Origin: Bacteroidaceae bacterium
Lineage (GTDB): Bacteria; Bacteroidota; Bacteroidia; Bacteroidales; Bacteroidaceae
Direction of reading: 5' to 3'
Length of the DNA stretch: 41,529 nt
Assembly: GCA_024398495.1 (NCBI GenBank)
Contig: JAKSJA010000016.1
Coordinates: 1 to 41,529, forward strand
Shown here one piece after another: positions 629-32,514 of the stretch (the first letter of the stretch is position 1; each line of letters begins with the position of its first letter). The notes under the pieces were generated by a model, which saw nothing but the letters and a program-made list of their open reading frames with translations, was not told where the DNA came from and searched no databases. The translations under genes were made by a program, and so were the position numbers.

Positions 629-633
629 ATTTT

Positions 634-665: not shown

Positions 666-691
666 CAGACGCAAAAATTCAGCTATATAAC

Positions 692-869: not shown

Positions 870-888
870 ACTTGAAATTTATTGATTC

Positions 889-960: not shown

Positions 961-986
961 CTCGCAGAGGTAAAAGAAAAGAAAAG

Positions 987-1016: not shown

Positions 1017-1168
1017 GCATTACAGAGGGGTTTTGGTGTTTTCCGTTGTTTTCCTAAAATTTGATATTTTTGATAGGTATTGCAAAAATTTAGCCCATAT
1101 TTGCACCCCAGAGCAAAAAAGTTCTGTATTTGCTTAACAAAAGAACAGCAACAAAAATTTCCGTTTTT

Positions 1169-1199
1169 TTTGTTTTTTTAAGAAAAACACCTACCTTTG
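1169..1199 (+). promoter_or_regulatory. Promoter of the outer-membrane barrel gene
   Basis: TTTG at 1169-1172, 19 bp, then TACCTTTG at 1192-1199. The predicted start of transcription is near 1205, leaving a 5' leader of about 45 nt before the ATG at 1249. Confidence 0.8.
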
Positions 1200-1248
1200 C
1201 AACCGTTTTTAGGTAACACTAATGTTTAACAAGAAAATTAAATTAAAA

Positions 1249-1854: not shown

Positions 1855-1876
1855 TCTCTAACTTCTTAATAAAAGA

Positions 1877-1909
1877 AAAGAACGGCAACATTTCGTTGTC
1901 GTTCTTTTT
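1877..1909. terminator. Bidirectional terminator between convergent genes
   Basis: A 13-bp stem (1877-1889 with 1895-1907, one G-U pair) with a 5-nt loop ATTTC and T-runs on both strands. It can end the barrel gene on the plus strand and the TPR gene (stop at 1912) on the minus strand. Confidence 0.85.
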
Positions 1910-1911
1910 GT

Positions 1912-3258: not shown

Positions 3259-3278
3259 ATTTGTAAAATTTTATTTAT

Positions 3279-5068: not shown

Positions 5069-5093
5069 AATCTTTCTGTTTTTATTCTTGATA

Positions 5094-5711: not shown

Positions 5712-5713
5712 AG

Positions 5714-6322
5714 TTATTCTACTTTCTTTAATGATGTTAACAGGTAATAACGGTTTTCACGGATATCCTGAAGTTGCGTCATCACCTTACTAATAATAGA
5801 ATACGGAGTCGTTGCATCAGCCTTGATAGCGAGTTTGATGTCCGGATTAATAGCATGAGTAGATTTTATCCACTCTTGGAACTGACTATTTCCGCCATTG
5901 ATACTATCCATAGGAATTCCGAGATTTGCGAGTTCATTGTCTCTGGCTTTTTCATCCATAGAGTAGAAATCGTTTATCTCTTCCAACTTACAGCCAAATG
6001 TCTGTGACTTGATGAATGCTGTCTGTTGTTTCTGTGGCATATTCACATTAAACTTTGTCAGCATGTCATTCAAGACAGCGGATGCATTGTCCTGCGTATC
6101 AAATCCCATAAAGACTTTTCCTGTCTTATCTACGAGTATAGAAAGTACTTCCTTGTCCGGAACCTTGATTTCGGAGACTGATGAAGGAGTGACCACCTGC
6201 ACAGGCTCTTTCTTTACGAATGTTGATGTCAACATGAAGAAAGTAAGCAAGAGCACAGTCACGTCCGACATGGCAGTCATGTCGATGAAAGTATCTTTCT
6301 TTGCTATTTTCACTTTACCCAT
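5714..6322 (-). CDS. exbD: ExbD/TolR-family biopolymer transport protein (first copy)
   Basis: A 202-aa ExbD protein. The N-terminal transmembrane helix (about 13-36) contains IDMTAMSDVTVLLLTFFM; Asp20 aligns with the essential membrane aspartate of ExbD. The periplasmic domain is 165 residues and ends with the usual ExbD pattern (IKADATTPYSIISKVMTQLQDI). It stands between exbB (gap of 41 bp) and the second exbD (gap of 2 bp). Sequence differs clearly from the second copy, so this is an old duplication and not a recent one. Confidence 0.92.
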   Translation of the reverse strand: MGKVKIAKKDTFIDMTAMSDVTVLLLTFFMLTSTFVKKEPVQVVTPSSVSEIKVPDKEVLSILVDKTGKVFMGFDTQDNASAVLNDMLTKFNVNMPQKQQTAFIKSQTFGCKLEEINDFYSMDEKARDNELANLGIPMDSINGGNSQFQEWIKSTHAINPDIKLAIKADATTPYSIISKVMTQLQDIRENRYYLLTSLKKVE

Positions 6323-6363
6323 AATTTTCAGTTTTTGAGATTAGAAAAATTAAGGTAAATCAA

Positions 6364-7221
6364 TTAAGCCTCTTCTATATGAGTTGCTGCGTATGTATTT
6401 ACAATAGAGAAACCAATTTCGTCAAGAGCGAAAGTGAGGTGGTCAATCTTATTTGTAAAATAGTTATAAGTGATAATTGCGAGAGCACCAGTTGCGATAC
6501 CGCAAGCAGTATTTACAAGTGCCTCAGAAATACCTGTTGACAATGCTACTGAGTCAGCGCCACCACCTGAAGCCAGAGCAGCGAATGACTTGATCATACC
6601 GGTTACAGTTCCGAGAAGTCCGAACAGAGTACCGAGAGAAGAAATAGCAGCGATGATAGGCAGGTTCATCTGCAATGTAGGCATCTCGAGTGCTGTAGCC
6701 TCTTCGAGTTCCTGACGGATAGAGATGATCTTCTGTTCCTTCTTCATCTTGTGGTCTTCTTCACATTCTTTGTATTTCTTCAAAGTTGCACCAACAACGT
6801 TTGCAACAGAACCTCTCTGCTTGTCGCAAAGCTTGTTACATGTTTCGAGGTCGCCTTTCTTCAGCGCTTCCTTGACGTTCTCAACGAACTTCTGGATGCT
6901 ACCCTTACCAAAGGCTGTACGGAGAGCAAACCAACGCTCGATAGAGATTGCCAGTACTGTAAGGAACAGACCCTGGATAAGTGGCACGATAACACCACCT
7001 TTGTAAACTGTACCGAGGAGGTTACCATCGAGAACTTCTCCGTCAGGATTGCCACCTACGAAATGGTCTGGGTTACCATAGATGAAGTGATAAACCAATG
7101 CTGCAATGACGATACATGCGATAATGATCCAAATTGCTGATTCAATTCCCTGAAATCCTTGCTTTTTCTTAGCAGGAGCGGCTTTCTTAGCAGGAGCCGT
7201 CTTAATTTCTTGTGTTGCCAT
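6364..7221 (-). CDS. exbB: ExbB/TolQ/MotA-family proton channel
   Basis: A 285-aa first gene of the Ton operon. The protein starts with an Ala/Lys-rich cytoplasmic tail (APAKKAAPAKKK, residues 10-20), then a transmembrane helix at about 28-48, a second at about 75-97, a cytoplasmic domain, and the conserved pair of helices near 190-215 (SSLGTLFGLLGTVTGMIKSF) and 228-252 (ISEALVNTACGIATGALAI). The last two hold the ExbB/TolQ signature that lines the proton path with ExbD. The N-terminal tail and extra helix are usual in Bacteroidetes ExbB. A -7 box (TATCTTTG) lies at 7306-7313, about 85 bp upstream. Confidence 0.95.
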   Translation of the reverse strand: MATQEIKTAPAKKAAPAKKKQGFQGIESAIWIIIACIVIAALVYHFIYGNPDHFVGGNPDGEVLDGNLLGTVYKGGVIVPLIQGLFLTVLAISIERWFALRTAFGKGSIQKFVENVKEALKKGDLETCNKLCDKQRGSVANVVGATLKKYKECEEDHKMKKEQKIISIRQELEEATALEMPTLQMNLPIIAAISSLGTLFGLLGTVTGMIKSFAALASGGGADSVALSTGISEALVNTACGIATGALAIITYNYFTNKIDHLTFALDEIGFSIVNTYAATHIEEA

Positions 7222-7305
7222 AAATAATTGTTTTTTAAAGTTGTAAATATTAAATTGGTTATTAAATTAAAATTTTTCGCCTATTGTTTTAGTCTCATTA
7301 TTCTG

Positions 7306-7313
7306 CAAAGATA
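7306..7313 (-). promoter_or_regulatory. -7 promoter box for the exbB operon
   Basis: TATCTTTG on the minus strand, matching TAnnTTTG. No good TTTG lies 19-21 bp upstream, so the -33 element is weak or absent. The implied leader is about 80 nt. Confidence 0.5.
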
Positions 7314-7350
7314 GCAATAAAGTTTATTTCCGACTTGCTTTTAACAAATT

Positions 7351-9276
7351 TTAAGAGTTTTTATTTTCATCGTCAAGTAATTCATTTATCCGCGCTATCA
7401 CTTCTTGATTAACGTGTCTTATCTGTCGGATATTGCGCAGCAGTATCAGACGGAAACGCCAGATACGGAAATAAAGGAATATGCCTACTGGCAAAATGAT
7501 GCCTGCAATGACGTTCAGACGATGGTCTTTGAACGGTGCCGTGTGTGCATCTGTCAAGATAACAGGATAACGGTTAATGGCTGACAGGATATGTTTGTCA
7601 CGGGTATTGCCTAAATCTTCTATTATAGTCTCCTGACGTTCATTGATGGACTCTATAACCATATCTGGTTGAGAACGGAAGAAAATTTTCACAACACTTG
7701 GGGCAGTAAACAGCTTGTGAGCCCTTGCATATTCAGCTAAATCTTCGTTTATTTGCAGGAGCTGCTCTGCATCCGCAGCATAGTCAGGTGCATGAAGGAT
7801 GACCTCCTTACTTGCAACATAACGTTTTGGCATAATACCAAACATTCTACGGAACAGGTTCGTATAGAAATCTGCATTCAAGATAGCAGAATCCTTGTTT
7901 GCCTTTATGGTAAAGAACACGGACAACGGTGTCAGTACTGCTGTTGAAAGGAATGCACCAAACCATAGAGGCCATGCCCCTTCACGCACCATCTTCGTTC
8001 CCATATTCTCCAGTATAAAATAAACAATGAACACCAACACACTAACGATGAGCGGCATTCCAAGTCCACCTTTTCTAATAATTGCCCCAAGTGGTGCACC
8101 TATAAAGAAGAAGATGATACAGGAGAAGGCCAACGTGAATTTCGCTATAGCTTCCAATCTATGCTTACGCAAATAGAACTCATTATCATTCGTGATGTAA
8201 GTTTTGAATTCCATATCCGTATTTGCCATGTTCACTTTGTCCAACGCCGCAGACACCACCTCACGTTTCTTCTCTTCTGACAACTTTGAGAATGCGCTGT
8301 CTATATCAATCTCCGTAACAGCAATCGTTTTTTTTGCCACGCCACTATTCTGAGGAGTTGATGCTGGTATATACAGAAGTCCCGAACGTTCTTGAGAATA
8401 ATATGTCATACCGAGTGTATCATAAGAATTGTTCATGGAATCTATATCGACAAGTATCTTTCCAAGACTTTTTGTTCGCGGATCATGAGAAAAGACATCT
8501 TCATCAGCAAGATTGAACCCTGCATCGAAATCGATGACAATATCCCTCTGAGTAAACGTCTCTCTTCGATACGGAACGTTTGATGCACCGGCGACAACAT
8601 CCGATGAGCGCATATTCTCAAACCATTCACCGCTGTAAAGATGAAGGATGAGATGTTTCTTTTCCTCAGTCATCGCAATACTTCCAGAGTCCGCAAGAAT
8701 TATGGCGGCATCCTCAAACGAAGATGTCAGGCGATATATCATCACGCCATAAAGCATGCGGCGGTCCATGTCTTTCTTCTGCACGTATACATTGCAATTC
8801 GGTATGCCTCCATAGAAAACGCCTTCAGGTATTTCCAACTCCGGATTTGTCTGTTTCATGGATATGAGAAGACGCCCGAAGGCCCTATTGGCATTAGGGG
8901 TAACAACATTCTGGAAATAAAAAGACATCAGCGCAATGCCCACGACAAAGATTATCATGCCACGGAACACCTGCAACAAGGAAACACCCGCCGCCTTGAT
9001 AGCCGTAAGTTCCGAACTTTCTCCAAGATTACCAAAAGTTATGAGTGATGCGAGCAGAATAGCCAATGGGAATGCCTGTGGCATAAGCATTAGCCCCATA
9101 TACCAGAAAAACTCGCCGAGAATATCAATGGTCAGTCCCTTCCCTATCATCTCGTCTACAGACCTCCATACGAACTGCATCATGAGTACGAACAGACAGA
9201 TGAAGAATGTTCCCACAAACAGAAGCAGGAACTGTTTCATCACGAAGATATCCAGTTTTTTAGGCTTAATAACCAT
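7351..9276 (-). CDS. LptF/LptG-family (YjgP/YjgQ) LPS export permease
   Basis: A 641-aa inner-membrane permease. ATG at 9276 is preferred; a TTG codon immediately before it is also open. The N-terminal half has the family's first helices (about 13-35, 50-75, 90-115) and the conserved KAAGVSLLQVFRGM coupling region. A large periplasmic jellyroll-like segment (about 135-370) follows, then three more helices (about 378-465) containing SCIIFFFIGAPLGAIIRKGGLG, the hallmark of YjgP/YjgQ proteins, and an extra C-terminal soluble region ending in a helix pair near 595-625. The long form is usual in Bacteroidetes. It works with LptB in pulling LPS out of the inner membrane. LptF cannot be told from LptG here. 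Confidence 0.92.
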   Translation of the reverse strand: MVIKPKKLDIFVMKQFLLLFVGTFFICLFVLMMQFVWRSVDEMIGKGLTIDILGEFFWYMGLMLMPQAFPLAILLASLITFGNLGESSELTAIKAAGVSLLQVFRGMIIFVVGIALMSFYFQNVVTPNANRAFGRLLISMKQTNPELEIPEGVFYGGIPNCNVYVQKKDMDRRMLYGVMIYRLTSSFEDAAIILADSGSIAMTEEKKHLILHLYSGEWFENMRSSDVVAGASNVPYRRETFTQRDIVIDFDAGFNLADEDVFSHDPRTKSLGKILVDIDSMNNSYDTLGMTYYSQERSGLLYIPASTPQNSGVAKKTIAVTEIDIDSAFSKLSEEKKREVVSAALDKVNMANTDMEFKTYITNDNEFYLRKHRLEAIAKFTLAFSCIIFFFIGAPLGAIIRKGGLGMPLIVSVLVFIVYFILENMGTKMVREGAWPLWFGAFLSTAVLTPLSVFFTIKANKDSAILNADFYTNLFRRMFGIMPKRYVASKEVILHAPDYAADAEQLLQINEDLAEYARAHKLFTAPSVVKIFFRSQPDMVIESINERQETIIEDLGNTRDKHILSAINRYPVILTDAHTAPFKDHRLNVIAGIILPVGIFLYFRIWRFRLILLRNIRQIRHVNQEVIARINELLDDENKNS

Positions 9277-9298
9277 CAAAAAAACTCTTTTAAGCGTA

Positions 9299-9306
9299 CA
9301 AAATTA
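9299..9306 (-). promoter_or_regulatory. -7 promoter box for the LPS permease
   Basis: TAATTTTG on the minus strand, 22 bp upstream of the ATG at 9276. No clear -33 TTTG. It lies back to back with the plus-strand box at 9319-9326. Confidence 0.45.
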
Positions 9307-9318
9307 CAAAAACTTTCA

Positions 9319-9326
9319 TACTTTTG
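9319..9326 (+). promoter_or_regulatory. -7 promoter box for the thioredoxin-like gene
   Basis: TACTTTTG, 20 bp upstream of ATG 9347. No good -33 element, so this is a tentative call. Confidence 0.45.
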
Positions 9327-9346
9327 CATTATTAAACTATTTTTTT

Positions 9347-9859
9347 ATGAAAAAGCTGATTTTATTGTTTATAGCCGTCTTTGCGCTATCTGTTTCAAGT
9401 GATGCACAACGTATTTCCGCTAACAGAGCTCCGGGAAAAAAGATTACAAATGTGAAATTACCAAACATGAAAAACAAGATATGCAACCTGACAGACTTTG
9501 TCGGCAAAGGAAAGAAAAATGTTGTACTCATCGACTTCTGGGCGACATGGTGCGGTCCTTGTATGAGAGAGATGCCTAATGTCAAAGCAGCTTATGACAA
9601 GTACCACAGGAGTGGATTCAATGTTGTAGGAATATCTTTCGACGAAGATGCTGACAGATGGAAGAGTACTGTAAAGAAAAACAAATGGAACTGGATTCAC
9701 CTATCAGATCTCAAAGGATGGAACTGTGCCGCAGGCAAGGTTTATAACATAATGGGGATACCGTCATCAATACTCGTCGATGGAAACGGAATAATCATTG
9801 CCAATGACCTTCGCGGAGAAGAATTGAATAACATGCTAAAAAAAATATACGGTTTTTAG
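9347..9859 (+). CDS. Exported thioredoxin-fold (TlpA-like) oxidoreductase
   Basis: A 170-aa periplasmic thiol-disulfide oxidoreductase. I start at ATG 9347, which gives a clean signal peptide (MKKLILLFIAVFALSVSSDAQ); a longer frame from 8936 runs back over the LPS permease and is not credible. The thioredoxin domain has the active site WCGPC with Cys69 and Cys72, preceded by LIDFWAT, and the cis-proline loop GIPSS near residue 140. The spacing and the AYDKYHRSGFNVVGISFD strand-helix fit the TlpA/ResA subgroup, which reduces cytochrome c or other periplasmic disulfides. Its stop codon touches the ATG of the exchanger gene (TAGATG), so the two are in one operon. Confidence 0.92.
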   Translation: MKKLILLFIAVFALSVSSDAQRISANRAPGKKITNVKLPNMKNKICNLTDFVGKGKKNVVLIDFWATWCGPCMREMPNVKAAYDKYHRSGFNVVGISFDEDADRWKSTVKKNKWNWIHLSDLKGWNCAAGKVYNIMGIPSSILVDGNGIIIANDLRGEELNNMLKKIYGF

Positions 9860-10819
9860 ATGTCCGTTATAGCAAGCATATTAGGTATCATCATCGGCGG
9901 GGCAATGGTAATATACGGAGCCGACCGTCTGACGGAGGGGAGTGTAGCACTTGCCAGACGTCTTAAAATGAGCGAAATGGTTATAGGATTAACCATCGTT
10001 GCTTTCGGAACGTCCATGCCAGAATTTGTTATCAGTCTTGTATCTGGGATAAAAGGCAGTGCAGACCTCGCTGTCGGAAACATCGTGGGAAGCAACATCT
10101 TCAACACCCTTATGATTGTTGGAATGTCAGCACTTGTTTGTCCGATAACGATAGCCCGTGCCACAATAAAAAAAGATATACCGTTTACTGTCATAGCCTC
10201 GATAGTTATGATTATCCTATGCTACAGAAACGGATGGTCAAACACCACAGGAAGTCAACTTACCGCCATTGATGGCAGCATATTATTGCTCCTGTTTACC
10301 GCGTTTATGTTTATCACATTCAAAGGCAATAGCAATAGTATACAAAACAACGGTGAAATCAAGAAAAACATAACCTTATTCCATACAATCATATATATTA
10401 TTTTAGGATTGATTTTACTTATCGGCGGTAGTGAGATTTTCGTCAGTTGCGCAAAAAAAATAGCATTGTCACTCAATGTCAGCGAGAGCGTTATCGGTCT
10501 CACCATCGTTGCATGCGGGACATCACTTCCCGAATTGGCAACAAGTGTTGTCGCTGCAAAAAAAGGCCGTTCAGAACTCGCCATCGGCAACGTGATAGGA
10601 AGCAATGTGTTCAATATACTGTGGATTCTCGGATTTACATCTTTGATATGTCCTTTGAATATCCAGGGAATGAACATCACAGACTTTGCCGTTATGCTTG
10701 GCAGCATATTGCTTGTATGGTTGTTCGCATTCACTTCATATAAAATAAAAAGATGGGAAGGGGCGGTATTGGTCACTATCTTCCTTCTATATACGATATA
10801 CCTTATAATAAAAGCATAA
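9860..10819 (+). CDS. CaCA-family Na+/Ca2+ (cation) antiporter, YrbG-like
   Basis: A 319-aa integral membrane protein made of two homologous halves of about five helices. Both alpha repeats are intact: GLTIVAFGTSMPEFVIS with GNIVGSNIFN (about residues 43-90) and GLTIVACGTSLPELATS with GNVIGSNVFN (about 211-257). The Glu in each S-x-PE motif is the cation-binding acid. An AT-rich linker around 150-170 divides the halves, as in bacterial YrbG proteins. Ion specificity (Ca2+, Na+, K+) cannot be inferred. It starts directly after the stop of the thioredoxin-like gene. Confidence 0.94.
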   Translation: MSVIASILGIIIGGAMVIYGADRLTEGSVALARRLKMSEMVIGLTIVAFGTSMPEFVISLVSGIKGSADLAVGNIVGSNIFNTLMIVGMSALVCPITIARATIKKDIPFTVIASIVMIILCYRNGWSNTTGSQLTAIDGSILLLLFTAFMFITFKGNSNSIQNNGEIKKNITLFHTIIYIILGLILLIGGSEIFVSCAKKIALSLNVSESVIGLTIVACGTSLPELATSVVAAKKGRSELAIGNVIGSNVFNILWILGFTSLICPLNIQGMNITDFAVMLGSILLVWLFAFTSYKIKRWEGAVLVTIFLLYTIYLIIKA

Positions 10820-10833
10820 AAAACACACTAATC

Positions 10834-11919
10834 ATGACCCACAAAAACAGAATATTATTATTTTGCGGCATAATAATTGTTTTTTCCTTACCTGCAAAAG
10901 GAGAAAACATTTTTCAAAAGGCATCCTATTTCATAAAAAAGTTCAATGCTGTTGACTCCAATTATATTGAACCCAAGAAATATGACTTCAAAGTAGGCAT
11001 AACGTACGTTTTCGGGCAAGAGAACTATAATATCTATACGGATAAAGATGTAGAATTAAAGTTTCGTTCACATACATCCCAGAAAATAGGTCCATCTATC
11101 GGGTATAAGATGTTCTCTGGCACGTTGGGATTAAGTCTCAATGCGCAGGATGTACAAAACAAGGACAAGATAGAACTTGAAGCCAGCATATTTACCCTAC
11201 GTTTTAATCTTGACCTATTCTACCGTAAGACTGGTGGCGATTTTATCTTGAGAGACTGGGAAGCACCATTCGCAAATAACTACATACCGGAAGACTGTCC
11301 TAAGAGTTGGAATATGGGTGGATTTGTTACATCAAAGATGGTGGGAGGCAATTTCTATTATGTCTTTAACCACAAGAAATTTTCATATCCATCAGCCGTC
11401 AGGAGTGTGGGTGTACAACTACGTTCTGCAGGCAGCGTATTGGCAGGAATTGGTTATACACATCGATTCATGACAAACCAACTGTCTAATTTCAGTAACA
11501 TGACAGAATGGTACTACAGAGGTTTGCCATCTGAATTCAACGAGTTTTCAAGTATCAACAATGACCTCTGCAGCAAAATGACATACAACGATTTTATCCT
11601 GTGGGGAGGGTACGCATACAATTGGGTTCCTGCAAGAAACGTACTCATCTCTGCTGCAGGCATGTTAGGTCCTGCAATAAAGACAGAAAAGGGAGATAAC
11701 AAAGAATCATGGAACAGAGATATTGTGCAGATTGACATCTCCGACACAATGGTTGACTTCAATTTCACAGGACGTATCTCTGCACAGTATAACAGCGGGA
11801 AATGGTTTGCCGGTGCACTTGCAAACATAAACCATTATCGATACCGCAACGGCAGCATTTCATTCCATACAGACAATACGTTTTGGAATGTACGTCTGTT
11901 CACAGGTCTGCGCTTCTGA
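10834..11919 (+). CDS. DUF4421-type exported protein, probably outer-membrane
   Basis: A 361-aa protein starting at ATG 10834, where a signal peptide begins (MTHKNRILLFCGIIIVFSL, cleavage near AKGE). An in-frame extension to 10753 overlaps the exchanger gene and is rejected. The sequence is rich in aromatic beta-strands (YDFKVGITYVFGQ, GPSIGYKMFSGTLGLSLN, GFVTSKMVGGNFYYVFNHKKFS) and ends with NVRLFTGLRF, a terminal-Phe barrel end. It resembles DUF4421 proteins of Bacteroidetes from memory. It follows the exchanger by 14 bp and is likely co-transcribed. It converges on the large barrel gene with only two bases between stop codons and no visible terminator. Confidence 0.75.
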   Translation: MTHKNRILLFCGIIIVFSLPAKGENIFQKASYFIKKFNAVDSNYIEPKKYDFKVGITYVFGQENYNIYTDKDVELKFRSHTSQKIGPSIGYKMFSGTLGLSLNAQDVQNKDKIELEASIFTLRFNLDLFYRKTGGDFILRDWEAPFANNYIPEDCPKSWNMGGFVTSKMVGGNFYYVFNHKKFSYPSAVRSVGVQLRSAGSVLAGIGYTHRFMTNQLSNFSNMTEWYYRGLPSEFNEFSSINNDLCSKMTYNDFILWGGYAYNWVPARNVLISAAGMLGPAIKTEKGDNKESWNRDIVQIDISDTMVDFNFTGRISAQYNSGKWFAGALANINHYRYRNGSISFHTDNTFWNVRLFTGLRF

Positions 11920-11921
11920 TT

Positions 11922-14918
11922 TTATCTTGGTCCACCGAAACCACCACGCATTCCGCCACCACGCATTCCGCTATCTGACGGTCTTCTACCACCGTTTGGA
12001 GGAGGGATGACACCATCAATACCACCCGGTACAACACTCTGAATAATCTCACGCGTCTTCTTGTTTCCAAAGGCTGTAAATCTGAATGAGGCACGCAGCA
12101 TCACGTAACTATTTATACCATTCGTTTCTGTATCACTACGCATCAAAGCATTGATACTGCGTGATATGTTGCTCTGTTGGTGAAGCAAATCATAGAACTG
12201 CAGACGTACCGTCAGAGGCTTTCCTTTGAGGAAGCTATGAGATATCTGAGCATTCCAAAGCAATTCATTTGTATTCATCGCCGCATCATTGTAACCACGG
12301 CGTGAGTTCTGGTTAAGCGATGTAGAGATGGCAGTACCCCAAGGGGCTGTCGCCTGTATGCTACCACCATAGGAGAACTGCCATGTATCCATGTTGTTAT
12401 TCTCCTGAAGCATATTGCGGGAGTGGTTATAGTTTAGTGTTCCATTCAATTCCACTTCCAACCATGAATTGCGGTAACTGCCAGCAAGACGTTCTCCAAT
12501 ATTTGTGGAACGAGTGGTATTCTTCTGTGGGTCAGAATACTTGTCTTTTGTATAATAACTCACATAATTGTTATAGCCGATGTTTGTGAATGTGTTTACA
12601 TTCCATGTGCCGACAGAATCTATTGACGCATTATACATAAACCCACCATTAGCACTCCAGTTGCCATTGATATTCATCGGCATGCTTGTCCTACCACCTG
12701 TCGCAGGGTCATAAGTAACCATATTTGACACACTATTCTGCGTAGTATTGAAATTGACGTTTGCCATTATCGCCTGATTATGGGAGGTGATATAATCATT
12801 GAAAAACAGTCGGACATAATGAGAGAATGAAGGTTTCAAGCCAGGGTTACCTTTCGTTATGTTCAACGGGTTACTGTCATCCGTAATAGGAATCATATCC
12901 GTCATAGAAGGCTCTGATGAGGCACCATTATACTGGATACGCATCTGGCTGACTTTCGAGAATTTATAACGGAAGTTTATCTGAGGAGACCAATTGAACA
13001 CATTACGGTTTATCACTGTATCTACATTTTGATAACGATATGTAAATTCTGTCTTCTGAGGAGTAAAAACCACACCAGCATTCAAATTAAAATTGTCACG
13101 TACCATACGGAACATCAAACGAAGAGTATGGGTATAGTCATGATATTGTGTAAACTTGGATAGATTTGCACTCAACAGACTATCCAGAGGTGCTACCATC
13201 TGTATTCTGTCAATATAATCTGCCCAGTTACGATACTGAAGAGGAATATCCATCAACCCCAAGTCGCGGAAGCGTTCATCAGAGAAATCGTAAGTACTCC
13301 TGTCATTCTGTTTAAAAGAATGTTGGAAAGTATAACTGAACTGCAGATATGTCTTCTTAAATATCGGTTCGCTGTATGTTGCCTGCATGCTGTAATCCCA
13401 GTTTTTTGCAGGAGTCAGGTTATAACGATTGTTTGAATACAGAGAATCAACGTATTGACCACTGGCATCTTTCTTCGTATGATACAAGCCCACATCCGAT
13501 AATGATATTGATTTGTTGTCGCCACTTCCCGTAGTACCTGTCAGACGCAGAGTTACGTTTCTGCCTTCGTTATTCAGTTTTCGATTCAACTGCAGAGTAC
13601 CCCTCAAAGATTTATTGTCAGAATATGAAATAGATTTGTTAATCTTATCATTCACGAGATATCCCAAGTCTTTCAGATGTTTCTTGTATTGCTCTTCCAG
13701 AGGATTATCTCCGCCACCCTCTGGTGCATATTCGTATGGATCGTGATCGAATGTTGCACTCATGTCCTGTGTTGTTCCATCACTTGAAGAATATGTGAAA
13801 GACGGACGGAAAAGGATATTAGTCATCGTATCTGGAGTCCACTCTATTCGTGCCTGTCCATTCCAACTATTACTGCGAGAGAAGCGTTGGTTGATACTGT
13901 TGGAATAGGACATATTGTCACCCACGAAGTTTTGTGTAGAGTTTTTACTCCACATATCTCCGTCAGAATGATTCCACCTCACAGAGCCATCCACCTTTAT
14001 AACGTCTTTCTTCTCATAGTTCATATTAACAGCAGCCATCTTAGAGTAATGATCTCCGCTATTGCCTCCGAAATCGCCACCACGAGAACTGAATCCCCTG
14101 TCGTTGACATTATTCAGACTTCCGATACCCATAACACGAAGACCTGGCTGAAACCATCCTCCCATGGCACGACCTGCATAACGGTCTTCCGTACCGATAC
14201 CGAAATCAACATTTCCCATATATCCCTTACTGACATCAGCGCCTTTTTTCAATCCTATGTCCAACACAGTCTGTTCTTCCCCATCATCAATGCCAGTAAC
14301 TTTTGTCAAATCACTCTTCTCGTCATACGACTTAATCTTCTCTATCACCGATGTAGGGATGTTCTTCATCGCTGTCTTTGTATCGCCGGTCATGAACTCT
14401 TTACCATCAACAAGAATCTTTTTGACATCCTTGCCATTGACCTTGACAGCACCATCAGAAGACACTTCTGCCCCCGGAATCTTTTTTACCAATTCTTCCA
14501 GCACAGACCCTTCTGGCACACGATAGGCATCAGCATTATATATAAAAGTATCCTCTTTCAGTACCACCTTCTTTGCGACACCGGCAATCTCTGCCGCTTT
14601 CAACATTACGCTATTGGTAGCAAGTGATATTGTTCCAACATTCATATCACCAGAAATGTTCAATGGCCTATAATAACTCTTGTACCCCACATACGAGATA
14701 CGAAGGATATAAGAACCCTTTTTCGCTTTAAGCGAGAAAGCACCATTATAATCAGTTGTCGTGCCGGAAACAAGCGAACTATCCGTTTTCAGCAGAGATA
14801 CTGTTGCTGAGATAACACTTTCGTTTGAAGTCTTATCGAACACCTTACCCGTGACCACCTGAGCCATACTCAGTTGCGTAATGACAATCGCCACAATAAA
14901 AAGAGAAAATCGTTTCAT
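11922..14918 (-). CDS. TonB-receptor-like outer-membrane beta-barrel protein (OMP_b-brl_3 type)
   Basis: A 998-aa protein. I prefer ATG 14918 (MKRFSLFIVAIVITQLSMAQ, a full signal peptide); ATG 14930 adds four residues. Domains in order are a CarboxypepD_reg-like beta-sandwich (about 22-105, VVTGKVFDKTSNESVISATV), a plug-like segment (about 115-230, with VNGKDVKKILVDGKEFMTGD), and a long barrel with many YxxxF strands. The C-terminus is a Gly/Arg/Met-rich tail (GMRGGGMRGGFGG) lying beyond the barrel. Such OMP_b-brl_3 proteins are TonB-dependent-receptor relatives that usually stand alone without a SusD partner, as here. The substrate is unknown. Confidence 0.88.
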   Translation of the reverse strand: MKRFSLFIVAIVITQLSMAQVVTGKVFDKTSNESVISATVSLLKTDSSLVSGTTTDYNGAFSLKAKKGSYILRISYVGYKSYYRPLNISGDMNVGTISLATNSVMLKAAEIAGVAKKVVLKEDTFIYNADAYRVPEGSVLEELVKKIPGAEVSSDGAVKVNGKDVKKILVDGKEFMTGDTKTAMKNIPTSVIEKIKSYDEKSDLTKVTGIDDGEEQTVLDIGLKKGADVSKGYMGNVDFGIGTEDRYAGRAMGGWFQPGLRVMGIGSLNNVNDRGFSSRGGDFGGNSGDHYSKMAAVNMNYEKKDVIKVDGSVRWNHSDGDMWSKNSTQNFVGDNMSYSNSINQRFSRSNSWNGQARIEWTPDTMTNILFRPSFTYSSSDGTTQDMSATFDHDPYEYAPEGGGDNPLEEQYKKHLKDLGYLVNDKINKSISYSDNKSLRGTLQLNRKLNNEGRNVTLRLTGTTGSGDNKSISLSDVGLYHTKKDASGQYVDSLYSNNRYNLTPAKNWDYSMQATYSEPIFKKTYLQFSYTFQHSFKQNDRSTYDFSDERFRDLGLMDIPLQYRNWADYIDRIQMVAPLDSLLSANLSKFTQYHDYTHTLRLMFRMVRDNFNLNAGVVFTPQKTEFTYRYQNVDTVINRNVFNWSPQINFRYKFSKVSQMRIQYNGASSEPSMTDMIPITDDSNPLNITKGNPGLKPSFSHYVRLFFNDYITSHNQAIMANVNFNTTQNSVSNMVTYDPATGGRTSMPMNINGNWSANGGFMYNASIDSVGTWNVNTFTNIGYNNYVSYYTKDKYSDPQKNTTRSTNIGERLAGSYRNSWLEVELNGTLNYNHSRNMLQENNNMDTWQFSYGGSIQATAPWGTAISTSLNQNSRRGYNDAAMNTNELLWNAQISHSFLKGKPLTVRLQFYDLLHQQSNISRSINALMRSDTETNGINSYVMLRASFRFTAFGNKKTREIIQSVVPGGIDGVIPPPNGGRRPSDSGMRGGGMRGGFGGPR

Positions 14919-28532: not shown

Positions 28533-28564
28533 AAAAAGGAAGTCCACCAAGTTAATGATGGACT
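28533..28564 (-). terminator. Terminator of the GTPase island operon
   Basis: On the minus strand AGTCCATCA (28564-28556) pairs with TGGTGGACT (28549-28541), one G-U pair, loop of six, followed by TCCTTTTT. The stem overlaps the stop codon of the last small gene. Confidence 0.7.
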
Positions 28565-28805
28565 AGAATTTTACTGCAACGGCAAATGGAATCACTGTGG
28601 CATCCGTATGGAGCAATATGTCGTAAGCCTCACGGAAAGCATCAACATGGTCATGAAACTGTTTGTCTGCCTTTACGTATTCTGCTATTTTGCTGAAATC
28701 ACAAGTTGATAGCAATTCACGCAAAGTCATTCCATATTTTATGTCTTCTTTATTTTCCATATACGACGTATTTCTTTGTTCTGCATATCCGTACGCGATT
28801 ATCAC
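28563..28805 (-). CDS. Small protein at the end of the GTPase island operon
   Basis: Up to 80 aa if it starts at GTG 28805, whose GTGA overlaps the TGA of the upstream gene, as for other genes of this operon; ATG 28760 would give 65 aa. The core TLRELLSTCDFSKIAEYVKA with a following FREAYDILL looks like the start of DUF6557-type small proteins as I remember them, but those are longer, so this may be a C-terminally truncated version. The stop lies inside the terminator hairpin. No signal peptide or membrane segment. Function unknown. Confidence 0.5.
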   Translation of the reverse strand: MIIAYGYAEQRNTSYMENKEDIKYGMTLRELLSTCDFSKIAEYVKADKQFHDHVDAFREAYDILLHTDATVIPFAVAVKF

Positions 28806-29173
28806 CTAAACGTTATCGTAGGTTTGGTGATTTTTATTTCACCAGGTTGGGTCAACTTATACACCTCGTTGTTGATGTAGTCACTCAAATCCGATACGTT
28901 GCCCTTGTTTGCACCGAAGTTCAGCAGGTTCAATATCGAACGTGAGGAGGATTCAACCACAACGTGACATGATGTGGAACTCGTTGCAGCTACCTTTATT
29001 TTTATCTTCTCCGAGAAGGGAGATACCCATGCTCCATGACGTGCTTCAATGATAAACAGGTCATCGTTGTATTTTATGCTACTGAACTTTGTACGTTTCA
29101 GCTCAAAGAGATGCTTGATTGCCGTATAAGTAGTTCGAGTGCTATGGGGAAATTCAAGAGTTGAGGTTTGCAT
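28802..29173 (-). CDS. Uncharacterised 123-aa protein of the GTPase island
   Basis: A protein without signal peptide or membrane helix. The pattern is a short N-terminal strand, a helix (TTYTAIKHLFELKRTKF), then strands (LFIIEARHGAWVSPFSEKIKIKVAA, HVVVESSSRSILN) and a C-terminal helix (NVSDLSDYINNEVYKL). This alpha-beta layout, with a 'GaNkgNv' turn before the last helix, recalls small single-domain proteins of the BamC or DUF1499 kind, but that is only a shape comparison. It starts seven bp after the preceding gene and overlaps the next one by four bases. Not recognised. Confidence 0.7.
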   Translation of the reverse strand: MQTSTLEFPHSTRTTYTAIKHLFELKRTKFSSIKYNDDLFIIEARHGAWVSPFSEKIKIKVAATSSTSCHVVVESSSRSILNLLNFGANKGNVSDLSDYINNEVYKLTQPGEIKITKPTITFR

Positions 29174-29180
29174 AGTCCTA

Positions 29181-29489
29181 TCAAGATATTATTTTGCCTT
29201 CAAAGGTTTCTTTACCGAAAAAAACATCTGTCACGCAAACAGACACCTTACAACCAGCAAGTTCCTTTGAAAGGATTGCACTTCGTTTCTCGGTCTTCTT
29301 AACCCAGTCGGGATGCATGGTAGATGCCAACCTATCTACAACTGCTATTCCGTTTGGGTATTCCCTGAAACGTGCAACGTAATTGGAAGTATAACTTCCG
29401 AATAAAGCACCTTGAACCATCCGCTCTTCTTTGTGAAGCCGAACGTCTTTGATGGTTAATGATAAATTATTGTAACGTTCTATTTGCAT
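29181..29489 (-). CDS. Uncharacterised 102-aa protein of the GTPase island
   Basis: A soluble protein, start ATG 29489. The N-terminal part is strand-rich (NNLSLTIKDVRLHKEERMVQG), the middle holds YVARFREYPNGIAVVDRL, and the C-terminal part has a helix with many Lys/Glu followed by KVSVCVTDVFFG. No motif I recognise. Its first 23 bases lie inside the 3' end of the zinc-ribbon gene in another frame, an unusually long overlap that implies coupled translation. Confidence 0.65.
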   Translation of the reverse strand: MQIERYNNLSLTIKDVRLHKEERMVQGALFGSYTSNYVARFREYPNGIAVVDRLASTMHPDWVKKTEKRSAILSKELAGCKVSVCVTDVFFGKETFEGKIIS

Positions 29490-30393
29490 CTGACAAATTT
29501 CCTTTCAAATTTTCTTTGATATTATTCATTCCTTTGGGATAAGCTCGGTTTGTATTACAGCTTGGACATTGTCTGAGGGCATCTTCCTCCCATCCTGGAG
29601 TTAGTCCGACAAACTCATTTCCACATTCTTCGCATTTAAAAATTGTGCCAAAATCAATTTCTAAAGACTCTGTTTGAGTAGAAACATATGTGGTTTCAGC
29701 AGAAAAGTCTATATTGCCACTAAAAATCTTGCACTGCATATTAGACAATATATTAATTGCTGATTGTACTTCGCTTAAATATGTTAATATGTATTTTTCT
29801 TTCTTATGCAATACACCATTGTTCTTGAATTGTTCAAGATAAAACGATAGGAGTCTGTCATCCATAAGTCCATGGATAATCATATATGACCTTATTTTAT
29901 CATATTTTTTAGGAGATTCATTATAGTTAATTGTTTCAATTACTTCCTTTATGTTGACATTTAATTGATTGGCAATCTTTCCGTTAACAGAAACTTTTGC
30001 TTTTAGAGGGACCTTCACATTCATTTCACCTTCTTTTAAAGACTTCTCCTCAAAACCTTTTGAAGATTTCAATATAATATGTTTTGCTCCCATCATTTCC
30101 AAAACAACTCTAACCGCTTGGCTTTTACCCTTTACGAAGATATTTACAATATCAGTATCAAAGAGTGATTCATATCTACAATCATATGCATTCCAAACAT
30201 AAATATCTGCCCCATTACCATTTGGTTTAGTTTGGGGGTTAATAGGGTATTTTTCTACATCTGATATATTAGCAATCTTTATTTCACCTCTATTAACACG
30301 TGTCTCAAGTTCCCCGTAATATCCATATTTCATTCCGTTGATGATATCTTCATCCGCAAATATCAACAACTGTGATCTTTGTTCAGTTTGCAT
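29467..30393 (-). CDS. Zinc-ribbon protein of the GTPase island
   Basis: A 308-aa soluble protein. The N-terminal 240 residues are not recognised; they hold a predicted alpha/beta part (QLLIFADEDIINGMKYG, DIYVWNAYDCRYESLFDTD) and a strand-rich middle (EMNVKVPLKAKVSVNGKIA). Near the C-terminus four cysteines form a zinc ribbon: Cys254-x2-Cys257 and Cys276-x2-Cys279 (KCEECGNEF and CPSCN). It overlaps the tail-anchored gene by 11 bases and the 102-aa gene by 23. Base composition is clearly A+T-rich. Zinc ribbons often bind nucleic acid or proteins; which applies here is unknown. Confidence 0.75.
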   Translation of the reverse strand: MQTEQRSQLLIFADEDIINGMKYGYYGELETRVNRGEIKIANISDVEKYPINPQTKPNGNGADIYVWNAYDCRYESLFDTDIVNIFVKGKSQAVRVVLEMMGAKHIILKSSKGFEEKSLKEGEMNVKVPLKAKVSVNGKIANQLNVNIKEVIETINYNESPKKYDKIRSYMIIHGLMDDRLLSFYLEQFKNNGVLHKKEKYILTYLSEVQSAINILSNMQCKIFSGNIDFSAETTYVSTQTESLEIDFGTIFKCEECGNEFVGLTPGWEEDALRQCPSCNTNRAYPKGMNNIKENLKGNLSDANRTLQ

Positions 30394-30817
30394 ATTTATA
30401 TAAAATTAATGTTAAAGCAAAAATAATCAAAAGCAACAATATAAGCTTTTTATAAGAATGTTTTTTTCTGACCTTCTTCCCCTGCAGACATAAAGTTGAA
30501 TTTTCATCTAATTCGTAACCAATTGTTTTCAGCTCTTTGTCCAAAGCAGATTTGTAATTAGAATCGTCTGTCAAAAACATAAAACTTAAAATCCTTCCAA
30601 GTTCATCTCTTTCATTCAAATGACCTTTGAAAAAGAACTTATCACCAACTTTGCCACACCATGGCTCTTTATTCCACAATGCCTGATCAGCCGCTTTTTT
30701 AATTTGGTCGAAAATTTCTCGATATTCGATAGTGTCTTTTATGATTACGCCATTACACGTAATAACATCTTTTTCGGAAAGACGTTTTGGTTGATACCAT
30801 AATAAACTATTACTCAT
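30383..30817 (-). CDS. Tail-anchored membrane protein of the GTPase island
   Basis: A 144-aa protein. Residues 1-112 are soluble (LWYQPKRLSEKDVITCNGVII, CGKVGDKFFFKGHLNERDELGRILSFMF). A basic stretch (KKVRKKHSYKK, 114-124) precedes a single C-terminal hydrophobic helix at about 124-140 with a four-residue tail, so the soluble part should face the cytosol. The start overlaps the GTPase stop by four bases (ATGA), tying its synthesis to the GTPase. It could be the membrane partner or effector of the GTPase; no known family recognised. Confidence 0.75.
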   Translation of the reverse strand: MSNSLLWYQPKRLSEKDVITCNGVIIKDTIEYREIFDQIKKAADQALWNKEPWCGKVGDKFFFKGHLNERDELGRILSFMFLTDDSNYKSALDKELKTIGYELDENSTLCLQGKKVRKKHSYKKLILLLLIIFALTLILYKYAN

Positions 30818-31497
30818 AAAGCAACAATGTCATTTTTTATTTTACTATAATTTTTAATTAAATTCAACGCATAAACCTCTGTTTTGATAGAAATACCTTC
30901 CACTTTAAAAGTACTCATCCCAATCGCATGTTTTATGTCTGCAGCGGCTTTTAGTTCATCATTTGTTTCGTATTTATCCAATTTCGTTCCAATAATTCGG
31001 CAAGAAACTTGATTGTAGTATTCTTTATTTTCTAGTATCGTATTGACACTGATCGCTTTTAGTCTTGCTTTGCATCGTTTTATTTGCTCATTCCATTTAT
31101 AGTCGTTATAATCTTCTAAATTAATTAGATAATAAATTCTTGTGTTGGGCTTCAAAGCTTCTTTATAATAAGGCACCCATTCATCGTCACCACCAAAATC
31201 TTTAGTTTCTTCTATTCGTACAGTTTTTAATCCTGAACGAATCTTCTTAGTTTCTACCCCTACTTGACCCGTATTGTGATATACATTTGGGTCGAAATGT
31301 TCTTTTTTCAATTGGTTCCATAATGTAGTCTTTCCAGATCCTTTATCACCTAAAATCATAACACTTACTGTAGGAGGTTTAATAGGATTATATTTTCCTC
31401 CTTTACCATCTTTTTTAGAAACAGTACTTGTACAAATCATATTAACCCCATCTATCTCTATCGAGAAAGATTCTGGGCGAAGATATTTCCTTTTCAT
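30814..31497 (-). CDS. Small P-loop GTPase of the island operon
   Basis: A 227-aa Ras-like NTPase. The G1/Walker A motif is G50-DKGSG-K56-T57-T58 in VMILGDKGSGKTTLWNQL. A G2-type Thr may lie in NTGQVGVET (75-83). G3 is D100-F-G-G103 in EETKDFGGDDEW. G4 is IIGTKLDKYE, with Thr171-K-L-D174 replacing the usual Asn. Together these suggest GTP specificity in a compact single-domain switch of the Arf/Rab size class, with a 45-residue N-terminal extension. It is soluble. It sits among a tail-anchored protein, a zinc-ribbon protein and small proteins, and a signalling role is the natural inference. Not assigned to a named family. Confidence 0.85.
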   Translation of the reverse strand: MKRKYLRPESFSIEIDGVNMICTSTVSKKDGKGGKYNPIKPPTVSVMILGDKGSGKTTLWNQLKKEHFDPNVYHNTGQVGVETKKIRSGLKTVRIEETKDFGGDDEWVPYYKEALKPNTRIYYLINLEDYNDYKWNEQIKRCKARLKAISVNTILENKEYYNQVSCRIIGTKLDKYETNDELKAAADIKHAIGMSTFKVEGISIKTEVYALNLIKNYSKIKNDIVAL

Positions 31498-31551
31498 CTT
31501 AATAATTTATTTGTTCGACATCTAATTCTGTCATATTCAAATACATAGTTT

Positions 31552-31896
31552 TTACTTATACTTGACTTTGATAATAGTATCATTGTCATTACCTGCAACG
31601 AAATCGACTTTTATATCCTCTGTAGGGATATTTAACTTTAGACCACGCGTATCTTTGGTCTTAATCTCCATTTCATCAACGCCTTGTTCTTTACCACTTC
31701 TAATCAAACACTCAATGGTTTCTCTTTTTGATTTATCTAAGCTTTCTGGCCCGTTCCCAAAAATTTTATCAAGTCCCTTTTCGATTATTTTAAGCACTGC
31801 TCCATAAGGGGAAAGAGGCATAGAAGAATTTATGAATTCTTTTGCTAATCTTAACCCTACTGAATTTGAAAGGTCAAACTGTTTTTTCATAATCAT
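31552..31896 (-). CDS. Uncharacterised 114-aa protein before the GTPase gene
   Basis: Start ATG 31896 (ATG 31890 is an alternative two codons later). The N-terminal half is helical (LRLAKEFINSSMPLSPYGAVLKIIEKGLDKIFG) and the C-terminal half is strand-rich and acidic/basic (LKLNIPTEDIKVDFVAGND, IIKVKYK). It has no signal peptide and no clear membrane helix, though the segment around 25-45 could be amphipathic. It lies 54 bp before the GTPase. Its ATG overlaps the stop of an 11-codon ORF (31893-31928). Not recognised. Confidence 0.65.
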   Translation of the reverse strand: MIMKKQFDLSNSVGLRLAKEFINSSMPLSPYGAVLKIIEKGLDKIFGNGPESLDKSKRETIECLIRSGKEQGVDEMEIKTKDTRGLKLNIPTEDIKVDFVAGNDNDTIIKVKYK

Positions 31897-31924
31897 ATAT
31901 TTGAATCTTTAATCAGTTTATCTG

Positions 31925-32068
31925 TCATATCTCTAATTTATTGATTTTGATTTCTTTCTTCACGTCTGACAAGGTTTTCCTTGTCCAAGCGATAAAGTCT
32001 TTGTGTTACTCATTCCATTCGGCATCGCATGTGTCGAAATATCTCGAAGCCTCGATAAATGTTTTCAT
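31925..32068 (-). pseudogene. Small gene interrupted by an in-frame TAA
   Basis: Reading from ATG 32068, 20 codons (MKTFIEASRYFDTCDAEWNE) end in TAA at 32006-32008, but the same frame continues for 26 sense codons (HKDFIAWTRKTLSDVKKEI...) to TGA at 31925-31927. The two parts read as one coherent 47-residue helical protein if the TAA were a sense codon such as TAC. Start is two bases after the stop of the DUF6140-like gene, and the final TGA overlaps a following ATG, so the whole unit fits the operon spacing. A nonsense mutation or recoding explains it; too short to identify. Confidence 0.6.
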
Positions 32069-32070
32069 GT

Positions 32071-32292
32071 CTATCCTATTCTTTCTACTTTAAGATAGGC
32101 ACTGCTCAATGCTCCTGCACGCTTAATATCCACTCCGTAAATACGCATAAACGCATCTACTACACTTTGCCCACCATTAGTATGGACAGGGTCATCAAAT
32201 CTGTTGCTTACTACATCAACACTCATTCCAGGCTCTAAACGAACACCATTGGTATTGATTCTCGACTTAACTGTTACTCTAAACAAAGGCAT
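32071..32292 (-). CDS. DUF6140-like small conserved protein
   Basis: A 73-aa protein from ATG 32292 (ATG 32298 adds two residues). The sequence PLFRVTVKSRINTNGVRLEPGMSV, with NGGQSVVDAFMRIYGVDIKRAGAL and a final LKVERIG, matches what I recall of DUF6140 proteins of Bacteroidetes: start MxLFRVTVK, a Gly-Met-Ser-Val turn, and an IYGxDxKKAGAL helix. It is probably a small beta-alpha cytosolic protein of unknown role. The frame is open 35 codons further upstream through a hairpin, but those residues look like RNA sequence and not the conserved protein. It is the first gene of the island operon. Confidence 0.75.
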   Translation of the reverse strand: MPLFRVTVKSRINTNGVRLEPGMSVDVVSNRFDDPVHTNGGQSVVDAFMRIYGVDIKRAGALSSAYLKVERIG

Positions 32293-32363
32293 AACCATCT
32301 CATTTGTTTTTGCCAGGTTAAGCCCAAACAAGGCAGGATTAGTAATCTGATGTATATATATAC

Positions 32364-32399
32364 AAAAAGTGTGGGCTTCGTACATCACTAATCCCACAC
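32364..32399 (-). terminator. Terminator-like hairpin in the island leader
   Basis: On the minus strand GTGTGGG (32399-32393) pairs with CCCACAC (32375-32369), loop of 17 with a further TT/AA pair, followed by five T residues (32368-32364). It lies about 70 nt before the DUF6140-like start codon. Its 5' arm shares ACAC (32396-32399) with the 3' arm of a long-range helix, so the two structures exclude one another. Confidence 0.6.
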
Positions 32400-32421
32400 G
32401 TCTAGGTCTCGCATTACCTCT

Positions 32422-32514
32422 CTAGTCAGGACAAGCAATGCGAACACCCACACCGAATATGATAAATCCTGTTACATCGAAACCTAAAATTACAATGCTA
32501 CAGTCCAATTTCAT
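32422..32514 (-). CDS. 30-codon hydrophobic ORF inside the leader RNA
   Basis: ATG 32514 to TAG 32424-32422 encodes MKLDCSIVILGFDVTGFIIF and ten further residues (GVGVRIACPD), a single strongly hydrophobic segment. The frame is the same as that of the DUF6140-like gene: apart from this TAG, it is open from about 32562 down to 32071. It may be a leader peptide, a small membrane peptide of the type I toxin sort, or a chance reading of conserved RNA. No ribosome-binding site is visible, as usual here. Confidence 0.35.
   Translation of the reverse strand: MKLDCSIVILGFDVTGFIIFGVGVRIACPD

What the first reader, a model, noticed from the sequence alone, without database searches (positions are those of the whole stretch)
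28563..32298. Candidate undescribed GTPase-centred membrane system in a compact island
Seven to nine minus-strand genes follow each other with overlaps of 4, 11, 23 and 4 bases: DUF6140-like protein, broken small gene, 114-aa protein, P-loop GTPase, tail-anchored protein, zinc-ribbon protein and three small proteins. The GTPase has G1, G3 and a variant G4 motif, and is translationally coupled to a membrane-anchored partner. The stretch is visibly A+T-richer than groEL or susC on either side and ends at its own terminator, which suggests acquisition as a unit. A small GTPase coupled to a membrane protein and a metal-binding protein resembles the layout of bacterial signalling or conflict systems, but no member matches a defence family I know.
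Basis: partly seen in the sequence, partly recalled or inferred. Interest (0 to 1): 0.8.

Follow-up and report, generated by a model that had tools for sequence, protein, structure and literature searches.

The report
RNA-led bacterial membrane GTPase island
A gut-type bacterium carries a small gene island whose core is an apparently undescribed three-protein set built around a GTPase switch at the membrane; the same set turns up in other Bacteroidales, often behind a small marker gene and a folded leader RNA that also precede islands carrying relatives of proteins catalogued as anti-phage.

Summary
The gene layout is real and correctly read. Three genes (GTPase, tail-anchored protein, 308-aa "third" protein) form a recurrent module: 10 distinct Bacteroidales loci, always in one order, 12-42% identical to the window. 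The GTPase is Arf/G-alpha-like; neither partner has a clear family in Pfam, NCBIfam, PADLOC or PHROGs. The zinc ribbon is peculiar to this copy. DUF6140 lies upstream, with at most one small gene between, in 6 of 10 loci (5 of 9 found without using it). DUF6140 heads many islands with interchangeable cargo, some matching LeoA/LeoBC or IetA of PADLOC, and the window's 123-aa and 114-aa satellites recur in some of them. Upstream of DUF6140 (window 32357-32462, minus) lies a structured RNA with outer stem, pseudoknot and U-run, supported by covariation, without an Rfam match; 34 of 50 DUF6140 genes have one. The RNA is a dispersed 5' leader (38 of 40 other copies precede a same-strand gene), also on surface-protein genes. 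Best reading: a membrane-associated GTPase switch in a modular conflict or envelope-stress island under leader-RNA control. Defence is inferred from context only; no fold or phage test could be run.

The parts
32357..32462 (-). structured leader RNA (type A): outer stem, hairpin, pseudoknot, then U-run; ends about 64 nt before the DUF6140 ATG
   Evidence: covariance model 81.9 bits, E 3.4e-18 (it is one of the model's training sequences); covariation; fold z -4.46, though the lowest-energy fold of this copy uses an alternative pairing; no Rfam match above threshold
32071..32292 (-). DUF6140 protein (73 aa), head gene of the island
   Evidence: PF19637 E 3.1e-32
31897..32070 (-). stretch without a long open frame, possibly a decayed small gene
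   Evidence: longest stop-free run 34 codons; no relative found
31552..31896 (-). 114-aa satellite protein
   Evidence: 44% identical relative directly after a DUF6140 copy in L102, an island with a LeoA homologue
30814..31497 (-). Arf/G-alpha-like GTPase (227 aa); this copy lacks the N-terminal hydrophobic segment of several relatives
   Evidence: PF08477 27.6 bits (cut-off 27) and PF00025 Arf 24 bits (cut-off 22.3); profile against PDB led by G-alpha and Arl3-type chains
30383..30817 (-). tail-anchored partner (144 aa, begins ..LLWYQ..)
   Evidence: C-terminal hydrophobic segment in 8 of 8 members tested; adjacent to the GTPase at all 10 loci
29467..30393 (-). third core protein (308 aa): conserved domain of about 250 aa plus a zinc-ribbon tail found only here
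   Evidence: same domain in large proteins of sister islands, profile-profile probability 98.3
29181..29489 (-). 102-aa satellite
   Evidence: 67% identical in L011, 44% in L012, both module loci; sub-threshold DUF896-like match
28802..29173 (-). 123-aa satellite, strongly conserved between islands of different cargo
   Evidence: 71-80% identical in L102, L011, L111, L105 and (in two pieces) L099; 31% in L088
28563..28805 (-). 80-aa protein, no relative found in the loci held
28541..28564 (-). terminator-like hairpin at the end of the gene run
   Evidence: such hairpins are as frequent in shuffles

Best explanation
A three-protein, membrane-associated GTPase switch carried as interchangeable cargo of a modular conflict or envelope-stress island. 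Shown: (1) GTPase, tail-anchored protein and third protein form one conserved unit; (2) the tail-anchored protein has a membrane anchor, and 5 of 8 GTPase relatives tested a clear N-terminal hydrophobic segment; (3) the third protein's domain also occurs in sister islands inside larger proteins, some with zinc ribbons, two with a C-terminal hydrophobic segment of their own; (4) a covarying leader RNA ending in a U-run precedes the head gene DUF6140. Inferred: a signal (phage entry, membrane damage or another element) relieves the RNA attenuator and/or moves the GTPase into its GTP state; the GTPase and tail-anchored protein then hold or release the third protein at the inner membrane, where it acts as effector or sensor-effector. 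DUF6140 and the 123/102/114-aa proteins are accessories shared by several islands.
For: Module in one order at 10 loci. G-domain profile best matches a G-alpha construct, a 'GTP-binding protein' and Arl3 chains. Tail anchors in 8 of 8. Third domain without the GTPase in L093, L101, L102, L103, L110 (found through DUF6140), L050 (found through the domain itself), L159 (found through the RNA) and L220. DUF6140 upstream in 5 of 9 module loci found without using it. Satellites shared with islands carrying LeoA-type proteins (L102 strong, L099 weak). Cargo matching PADLOC: LeoA 1.6e-149 and 1.7e-146, LeoBC 1.5e-99 and 2.2e-82, IetA 9.2e-31; an IetA-like AAA downstream of the module in L012 and AbiEi/AbiEii beside it in L011. 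RNA covariation, leader position.
Against: No fold, biochemistry or phage test. The window GTPase lacks the N-terminal hydrophobic segment and the island holds an interrupted stretch, so this copy may be degenerate. Four module loci have no adjacent DUF6140 (three of those genomes have none at all; the fourth, L051, begins at a contig end). Five of the 10 module loci (L013, L048, L049, L051, L109) show no leader RNA ahead of the module. The RNA also precedes many secreted and surface-protein genes, which points to an envelope or surface regulon as much as to defence. Six of 19 island proteins scanned had no PADLOC match and five only weak ones; the IetA matches may in part reflect the general AAA fold. 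No PADLOC match for any window protein (best E 0.017). No match of the GTPase in the phage or plasmid collections.
Confidence: 0.5

Rival explanations
1. An envelope or surface-adaptation switch, not defence: the GTPase controls placement or turnover of surface proteins at the membrane, and the leader RNA marks a surface/stress regulon.
For: Many of the 40 other RNA copies precede genes that look secreted, lipoprotein or LRR-type surface genes (by eye); an SPFH-like protein follows one copy (L140, by eye); Arf-like domain with membrane partners.
Against: The module is rare and patchy (5 of 399 genomes of the family match, own included, four of them modules) and two module loci have IetA-like or AbiE genes beside them.
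Confidence: 0.27
2. A selfish stabilisation or addiction cassette of mobile islands, with the third protein toxic and the GTPase pair restraining it.
For: Tight coupling by overlaps; AbiE genes beside the module in L011; patchy spread; an unannotated record (L220) pairs DUF6140 and a third-domain protein with genes that look like an integrase and mobilisation genes (by eye).
Against: Three conserved proteins plus several satellites is unlike two-gene addiction modules; no toxin family among the matches.
Confidence: 0.13
3. A decaying remnant with no present function in this genome.
For: No N-terminal hydrophobic segment on the GTPase; interrupted stretch at 31897-32070.
Against: All three core frames and four satellites are open with overlaps kept; G1, G3 and a G4 variant kept.
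Confidence: 0.1

Closest known systems
DO-GTPase/GAP1 GTPase-centric conflict systems (eLife 2020, PMC7159879; passages read)
   Same: GTPase plus a conserved partner at the centre of variable islands, often with membrane segments and zinc ribbons
   Different: single Arf-like GTPase, not a DO-GTPase; no GAP1 or DO-GTPase family among the matches
LeoA/LeoB/LeoC dynamin-like proteins (PMC4159319, search listing seen)
   Same: sister DUF6140 islands carry homologues, and L102 shares the 123-aa and 114-aa satellites with the window
   Different: the window GTPase is a small Arf-like domain, with no Dynamin_N or Leo match
MglA/MglB small-GTPase switches of bacteria (recalled)
   Same: small GTPase with a cognate partner in one operon
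   Different: no roadblock partner matched; the tail-anchored partner, and 5 of 8 GTPase relatives, have membrane segments
Eukaryotic Arf/SR-beta-type GTPases
   Same: DxGG G3 motif, best profile matches to Arl3/Arf/G-alpha chains; N-terminal membrane attachment in several relatives (the SR-beta comparison is recalled)
   Different: G4 is a THxD/TKxD variant; bacterial operon with two unrelated partners
FopS paralogous sRNAs of Bacteroides (PMC11697453; passages read)
   Same: multicopy small structured RNAs in Bacteroidaceae
   Different: FopS are classed there as intergenic, antisense or 3'UTR sRNAs that act on other mRNAs; ours lies ahead of a same-strand gene in 38 of 40 copies

Membership tests
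DO-GTPase/GAP1 system | GTPase of the DO-GTPase family | tested here: not met
   no DO-GTPase family among the 18 listed for the GTPase at E up to 5 (DO-GTPase2 is in that library, as one search shows)
DO-GTPase/GAP1 system | GAP1 protein encoded next to it | tested here: not met
   no GAP1-type family for the partners; that GAP1 models are in this library is recalled
DO-GTPase/GAP1 system | conserved glutamate in Walker B | not tested
   feature read; not compared residue by residue
Leo/bacterial dynamin-like system | Dynamin_N domain and large helical domain | tested here: not met
   for the window proteins; met by sister-island proteins
MglA/MglB switch | roadblock-domain partner (recalled) | tested here: not met
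   no roadblock family for either partner
Arf/Ras-like GTPase superfamily | G1, G3 and G4 motifs and profile similarity to solved members | tested here: met
   G4 is a TKLD/THxD variant, and not every relative keeps its last Asp
Arf/Ras-like GTPase superfamily | GTP binding and hydrolysis | not testable with these tools
   needs purified protein
cis-regulatory leader RNA | conserved secondary structure with compensatory changes | tested here: met
   0 of 500 shuffles reach the covariation score; slid structures score less than half. The count of further pair types is weaker (19 and 33 of 500 shuffles reach it), and related sequences can exceed shuffles
cis-regulatory leader RNA | same-strand position ahead of genes | tested here: met
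   38 of 40 copies, p 1.5e-9
cis-regulatory leader RNA | two exclusive states (attenuator switch) | tested here: inconclusive
   an alternative 3' hairpin is in the lowest-energy fold of two of six RNAs, but its covariation is not above shuffles (90 of 500)
known RNA families (Rfam 15) | match to a curated family | tested here: not met
   the best overlap is a sub-threshold mir-92 match at window 32387-32466 (20 bits, threshold 47)
anti-phage defence system | protection against phage | not testable with these tools
   context only

The most novel reading that the evidence does not exclude
DUF6140-headed islands behind a pseudoknotted leader RNA are an undescribed class of modular conflict islands in Bacteroidales: one RNA switch senses infection or membrane damage and turns on interchangeable cargo (Leo-type dynamins, IetA-like AAA proteins, third-domain proteins), of which the Arf-like GTPase, tail-anchored protein and third protein are a new immune system with a G-protein-like membrane switch.
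Probability: 0.35. Interest if true: 0.87.

Novelty: new variant of a known kind. Interest (0 to 1): 0.68.

Why it matters
If right, bacteria of the gut and mouth use an Arf/G-alpha-like membrane switch in a defence or stress operon, a layout best known from eukaryotic signalling. The shared head gene and leader RNA would give a search handle for a whole class of island cargo of which I found only parts in the PADLOC catalogue, and the RNA itself, present in many copies in some Prevotella-like genomes and without an Rfam match, would be a testable regulator.

Tried and rejected
Profiles of the third protein against solved structures gave only short matches to designed proteins and an insignificant match to a 'Crystal protein' chain (2ztb, E 0.33 and 0.17); that this chain is an aerolysin-type pore former is recalled, and the profile of the long forms did not repeat it, so a pore-forming role was not adopted. 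The tail-anchored profile gave nothing below E 0.45. A scan of named genomes with the GTPase alone and scans of viral contigs found no relative. A GTPase profile across 395 genomes of the phylum gave 35 genomes, own included, but none of the 29 other loci held matched the partner profiles: no module seen outside the order. Two weak hits were dropped as chance: L005 (no profile match) and L009 (only a weak tail-anchored-profile match, no GTPase or third protein). The idea that the RNA is a mobile palindrome without a role in expression was put aside because 38 of 40 copies point into a gene. The idea that it belongs to DUF6140 alone was rejected because 11 of 20 genomes without DUF6140 carry it (type A model, two of the 11 weakly). 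FopS sRNAs were considered and differ in position. A second hairpin as a riboswitch-like alternative was not supported by covariation. 'TerB-like' tails seen by eye in some third-domain proteins were not confirmed: Pfam gave only sub-threshold ENT matches; TerB itself matched another island protein (L125).
Full report
Where it is. The window is one contig of an incomplete assembly (1.43 Mb in 37 contigs, 62.7% complete). A genome that the tool calls 'same genus', G178, carries its module on a contig of 363,250 bases, the length of the contig on which the named collection has the same locus of Hoylesella loescheii, so this is a Prevotella-like bacterium.

The named genes exist at the stated places with the stated overlaps. 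The stretch is A+T-rich (34.7% GC against 41.8% for the rest of the window). GroEL lies on one side. In 15 same-genus relatives whose groEL was fetched, profiles of DUF6140 and the three core proteins match nothing around it; 12 of these have about 1.5 kb of sequence after groEL, three only 192-640 bases. This fits a unit gained at this site, but only 1.5 kb could be seen.

A three-gene module. Starting from the GTPase alone, 5 of 399 genomes of the family match at E 1e-3, own included: three others are true relatives and one (L005) matched none of the later profiles. The tail-anchored profile added two more in the order (4 of 393 genomes, own included; the fourth, L009, rejected) and one named assembly (L011, where the other three of four loci were known already). 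The third-protein profile added two full modules and one lone domain in the genus (4 of 200 genomes, own included). A tenth locus (L109) came from the DUF6140 search. At each of the 10 loci with a strong GTPase match the order is GTPase, tail-anchored protein, third protein. Identities to the window run from 12 to 42% by protein and alignment, so the module evolves fast. Across 395 genomes of the phylum no module was seen outside the order in the 29 other loci held.

The proteins. The GTPase has G1, a DxGG G3 and a THxD-type G4 (TKLD here); some relatives depart at G3 or G4. Its profile against solved structures is led by a G-alpha construct, a 'GTP-binding protein' and Arl3 chains, with Roc of LRRK2 further down. 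An N-terminal hydrophobic segment is clear (mean hydropathy over 19 residues 2.0 or more) in 5 of 9 members, weaker (1.2-1.3) in three, and absent in the window copy (0.53). The partner has a C-terminal hydrophobic anchor in 8 of 8 members tested. The third protein has a domain of about 250 residues; a zinc ribbon follows it only in the window. The same domain (profile-profile probability 98.3) forms part of large proteins elsewhere: L093, L101, L102, L103 and L110 (found through DUF6140), L050 (found through the domain), L159 (found through the RNA, E 9.2e-7) and L220. L093 has an N-terminal zinc ribbon by Pfam; L101, L103 and L159 have cysteine pairs, and L101 and L103 a C-terminal hydrophobic segment, by eye. 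I infer that this domain acts at the membrane, brought there either by its own segment or by the tail-anchored partner.

The island class. DUF6140 lies upstream of the module in 5 of 9 loci found without using it, and in L109: directly before the GTPase in L010, L011, L052 and L109, with one small gene between in L012, and with the 114-aa gene and the interrupted stretch between in the window. It occurs in 56 of 301 genomes of the family and in none of 14 control genomes; a search of the paper library found no paper that names it. Three module genomes lack it altogether. In 40 longer stretches fetched around DUF6140 (mostly the better matches) it is followed by different cargo. I scanned 19 proteins against PADLOC, 17 of them from the 356 collected and two from other loci. 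Eight match well: LeoA 1.6e-149 (L102) and 1.7e-146 (L091), LeoBC 1.5e-99 (L091) and 2.2e-82 (L125), IetA 9.2e-31 (L097) and 7.4e-26 (L012, downstream of the module itself; part of this may be the general AAA fold), and AbiEi/AbiEii beside the module in L011. Five match weakly and six not at all. The window's 123-aa protein is 71-80% identical in islands of other cargo (L102, L111, L105, L099) and in L011, while the core proteins shared with L011 are only 30-42% identical; the 114-aa protein recurs after DUF6140 in L102. So accessories are shared between island types while the core varies.

The leader RNA. Regions upstream of DUF6140 hold an element of about 90 nt. Type A (12 sequences, window included): a 7-pair outer stem, a hairpin and a 5-pair pseudoknot, then a U-run. 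Of 263 cells 92.8% pair; 10 of 22 pairs show changes on both sides; the covariation score is 0.355, against 0.083-0.137 when slid, and 0 of 500 shuffles reach it. Types B/C (19 sequences): 91.4%, 0.309, against 0.098-0.140, 0 of 500. The structures were derived from these same sequences, which favours them against slid versions, and one measure (further pair types) is less clear (19 and 33 of 500). In the window copy the pseudoknot has one mismatch. Of 50 DUF6140 genes 34 have an element (E 0.01) within 700 nt upstream on the same strand, 25 of them in loci used for training and 9 not; 16 have none. A control of 202 kb gave one weak hit (23.5 bits) and none for the other model. No Rfam family matched above threshold. 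The window RNA folds with z -4.46, but its lowest-energy fold is the alternative pairing, not the consensus, which a nested fold cannot show in full.

The RNA is wider than DUF6140. In 55 genomes (35 with DUF6140, 20 without) each model hit 39; the type A model hit 28 of 35 and 11 of 20 (two of the 11 below 35 bits), with up to 16 copies in one genome. In 80 genomes of the order it hit 15, with strong matches (60 bits or more) in the own genome and five others; the remaining nine were at most 34.1 bits. I fetched 40 of the higher-scoring copies away from the DUF6140 hits; none of the 40 stretches matches the DUF6140, GTPase or tail-anchored profiles. In 38 the next gene lies on the same strand, in 33 of these 40-210 nt on (automatic gene calls; p 1.5e-9). 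These genes include secreted and surface proteins as well as conflict-type ones (named by eye), so the RNA looks like a cis-acting leader of a regulon, perhaps an attenuator. Its trigger is unknown.

Mechanism and limits. The best-supported model is a membrane GTPase switch that controls the third protein, in half of the loci under leader-RNA control, in islands that share accessories and cargo types with defence-like systems. Steps shown: module, anchors, domain sharing, RNA structure and position. Steps inferred: switch, effector role, trigger, defence. An envelope-stress role is a serious rival because of the RNA's other targets. No experiment or fold was available.

Novelty. The module meets no tested definition of DO-GTPase/GAP1, Leo or MglA/MglB systems, yet is laid out like a GTPase-centred conflict system: a new variant of a known kind. 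The island class with its RNA may be more than that. The claim that it is not in print rests only; PMC8040213 (search listing seen) reports thousands of candidate RNAs from human microbiomes, whose supplements I could not read and which may include this one.

Noticed in passing
L146-L185: The leader RNA precedes many genes outside these islands, including ones that look like secreted proteins, LRR-type surface proteins, a vWA protein and a radical-SAM-like protein (named by eye); up to 16 copies in one genome.
   Followed up: partly
L012 4191-4304 and 4541-4650; L088 3652-3766 and 3308-3417; L091 10006-10121 and 9588-9695: Two leader RNAs in tandem upstream of DUF6140: a C type about 420-480 nt ahead and a B type about 65-90 nt ahead.
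   Followed up: no
L012 2337-3950, L088 4311-5732, L091 10576-12033, L093 10763-12190, also L090, L095, L098: A divergent gene (about 400-540 aa, HTH-like start by eye) upstream of DUF6140 in seven islands, a possible island regulator; no Pfam match for the L093 copy.
   Followed up: partly
L220 (MT836227.1) 1-14848: A record called 'Bacteriophage sp.' begins inside DUF6140, followed by a protein 61% identical to the L093 third-domain protein and by genes that look like an integrase and mobilisation genes by eye; more likely an integrative element than a phage.
   Followed up: partly
window 31369-31497 (GTPase N terminus): The first 43 residues lack the hydrophobic segment of relatives and recall short Prevotella/Bacteroides peptides (from memory); may be a replaced N terminus. 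No relative in the loci held.
   Followed up: partly
L050 4725-5904: Transposase-like frames (by eye) lie between DUF6140 and a third-domain protein, which is shortened at its N terminus.
   Followed up: no
L048 3539-3886 and L013 509-901: Small BNR-like proteins (sub-threshold Pfam match for L048; L013 by eye) precede two modules that lack DUF6140; a 60-aa zinc-ribbon protein lies next to the L048 one.
   Followed up: partly
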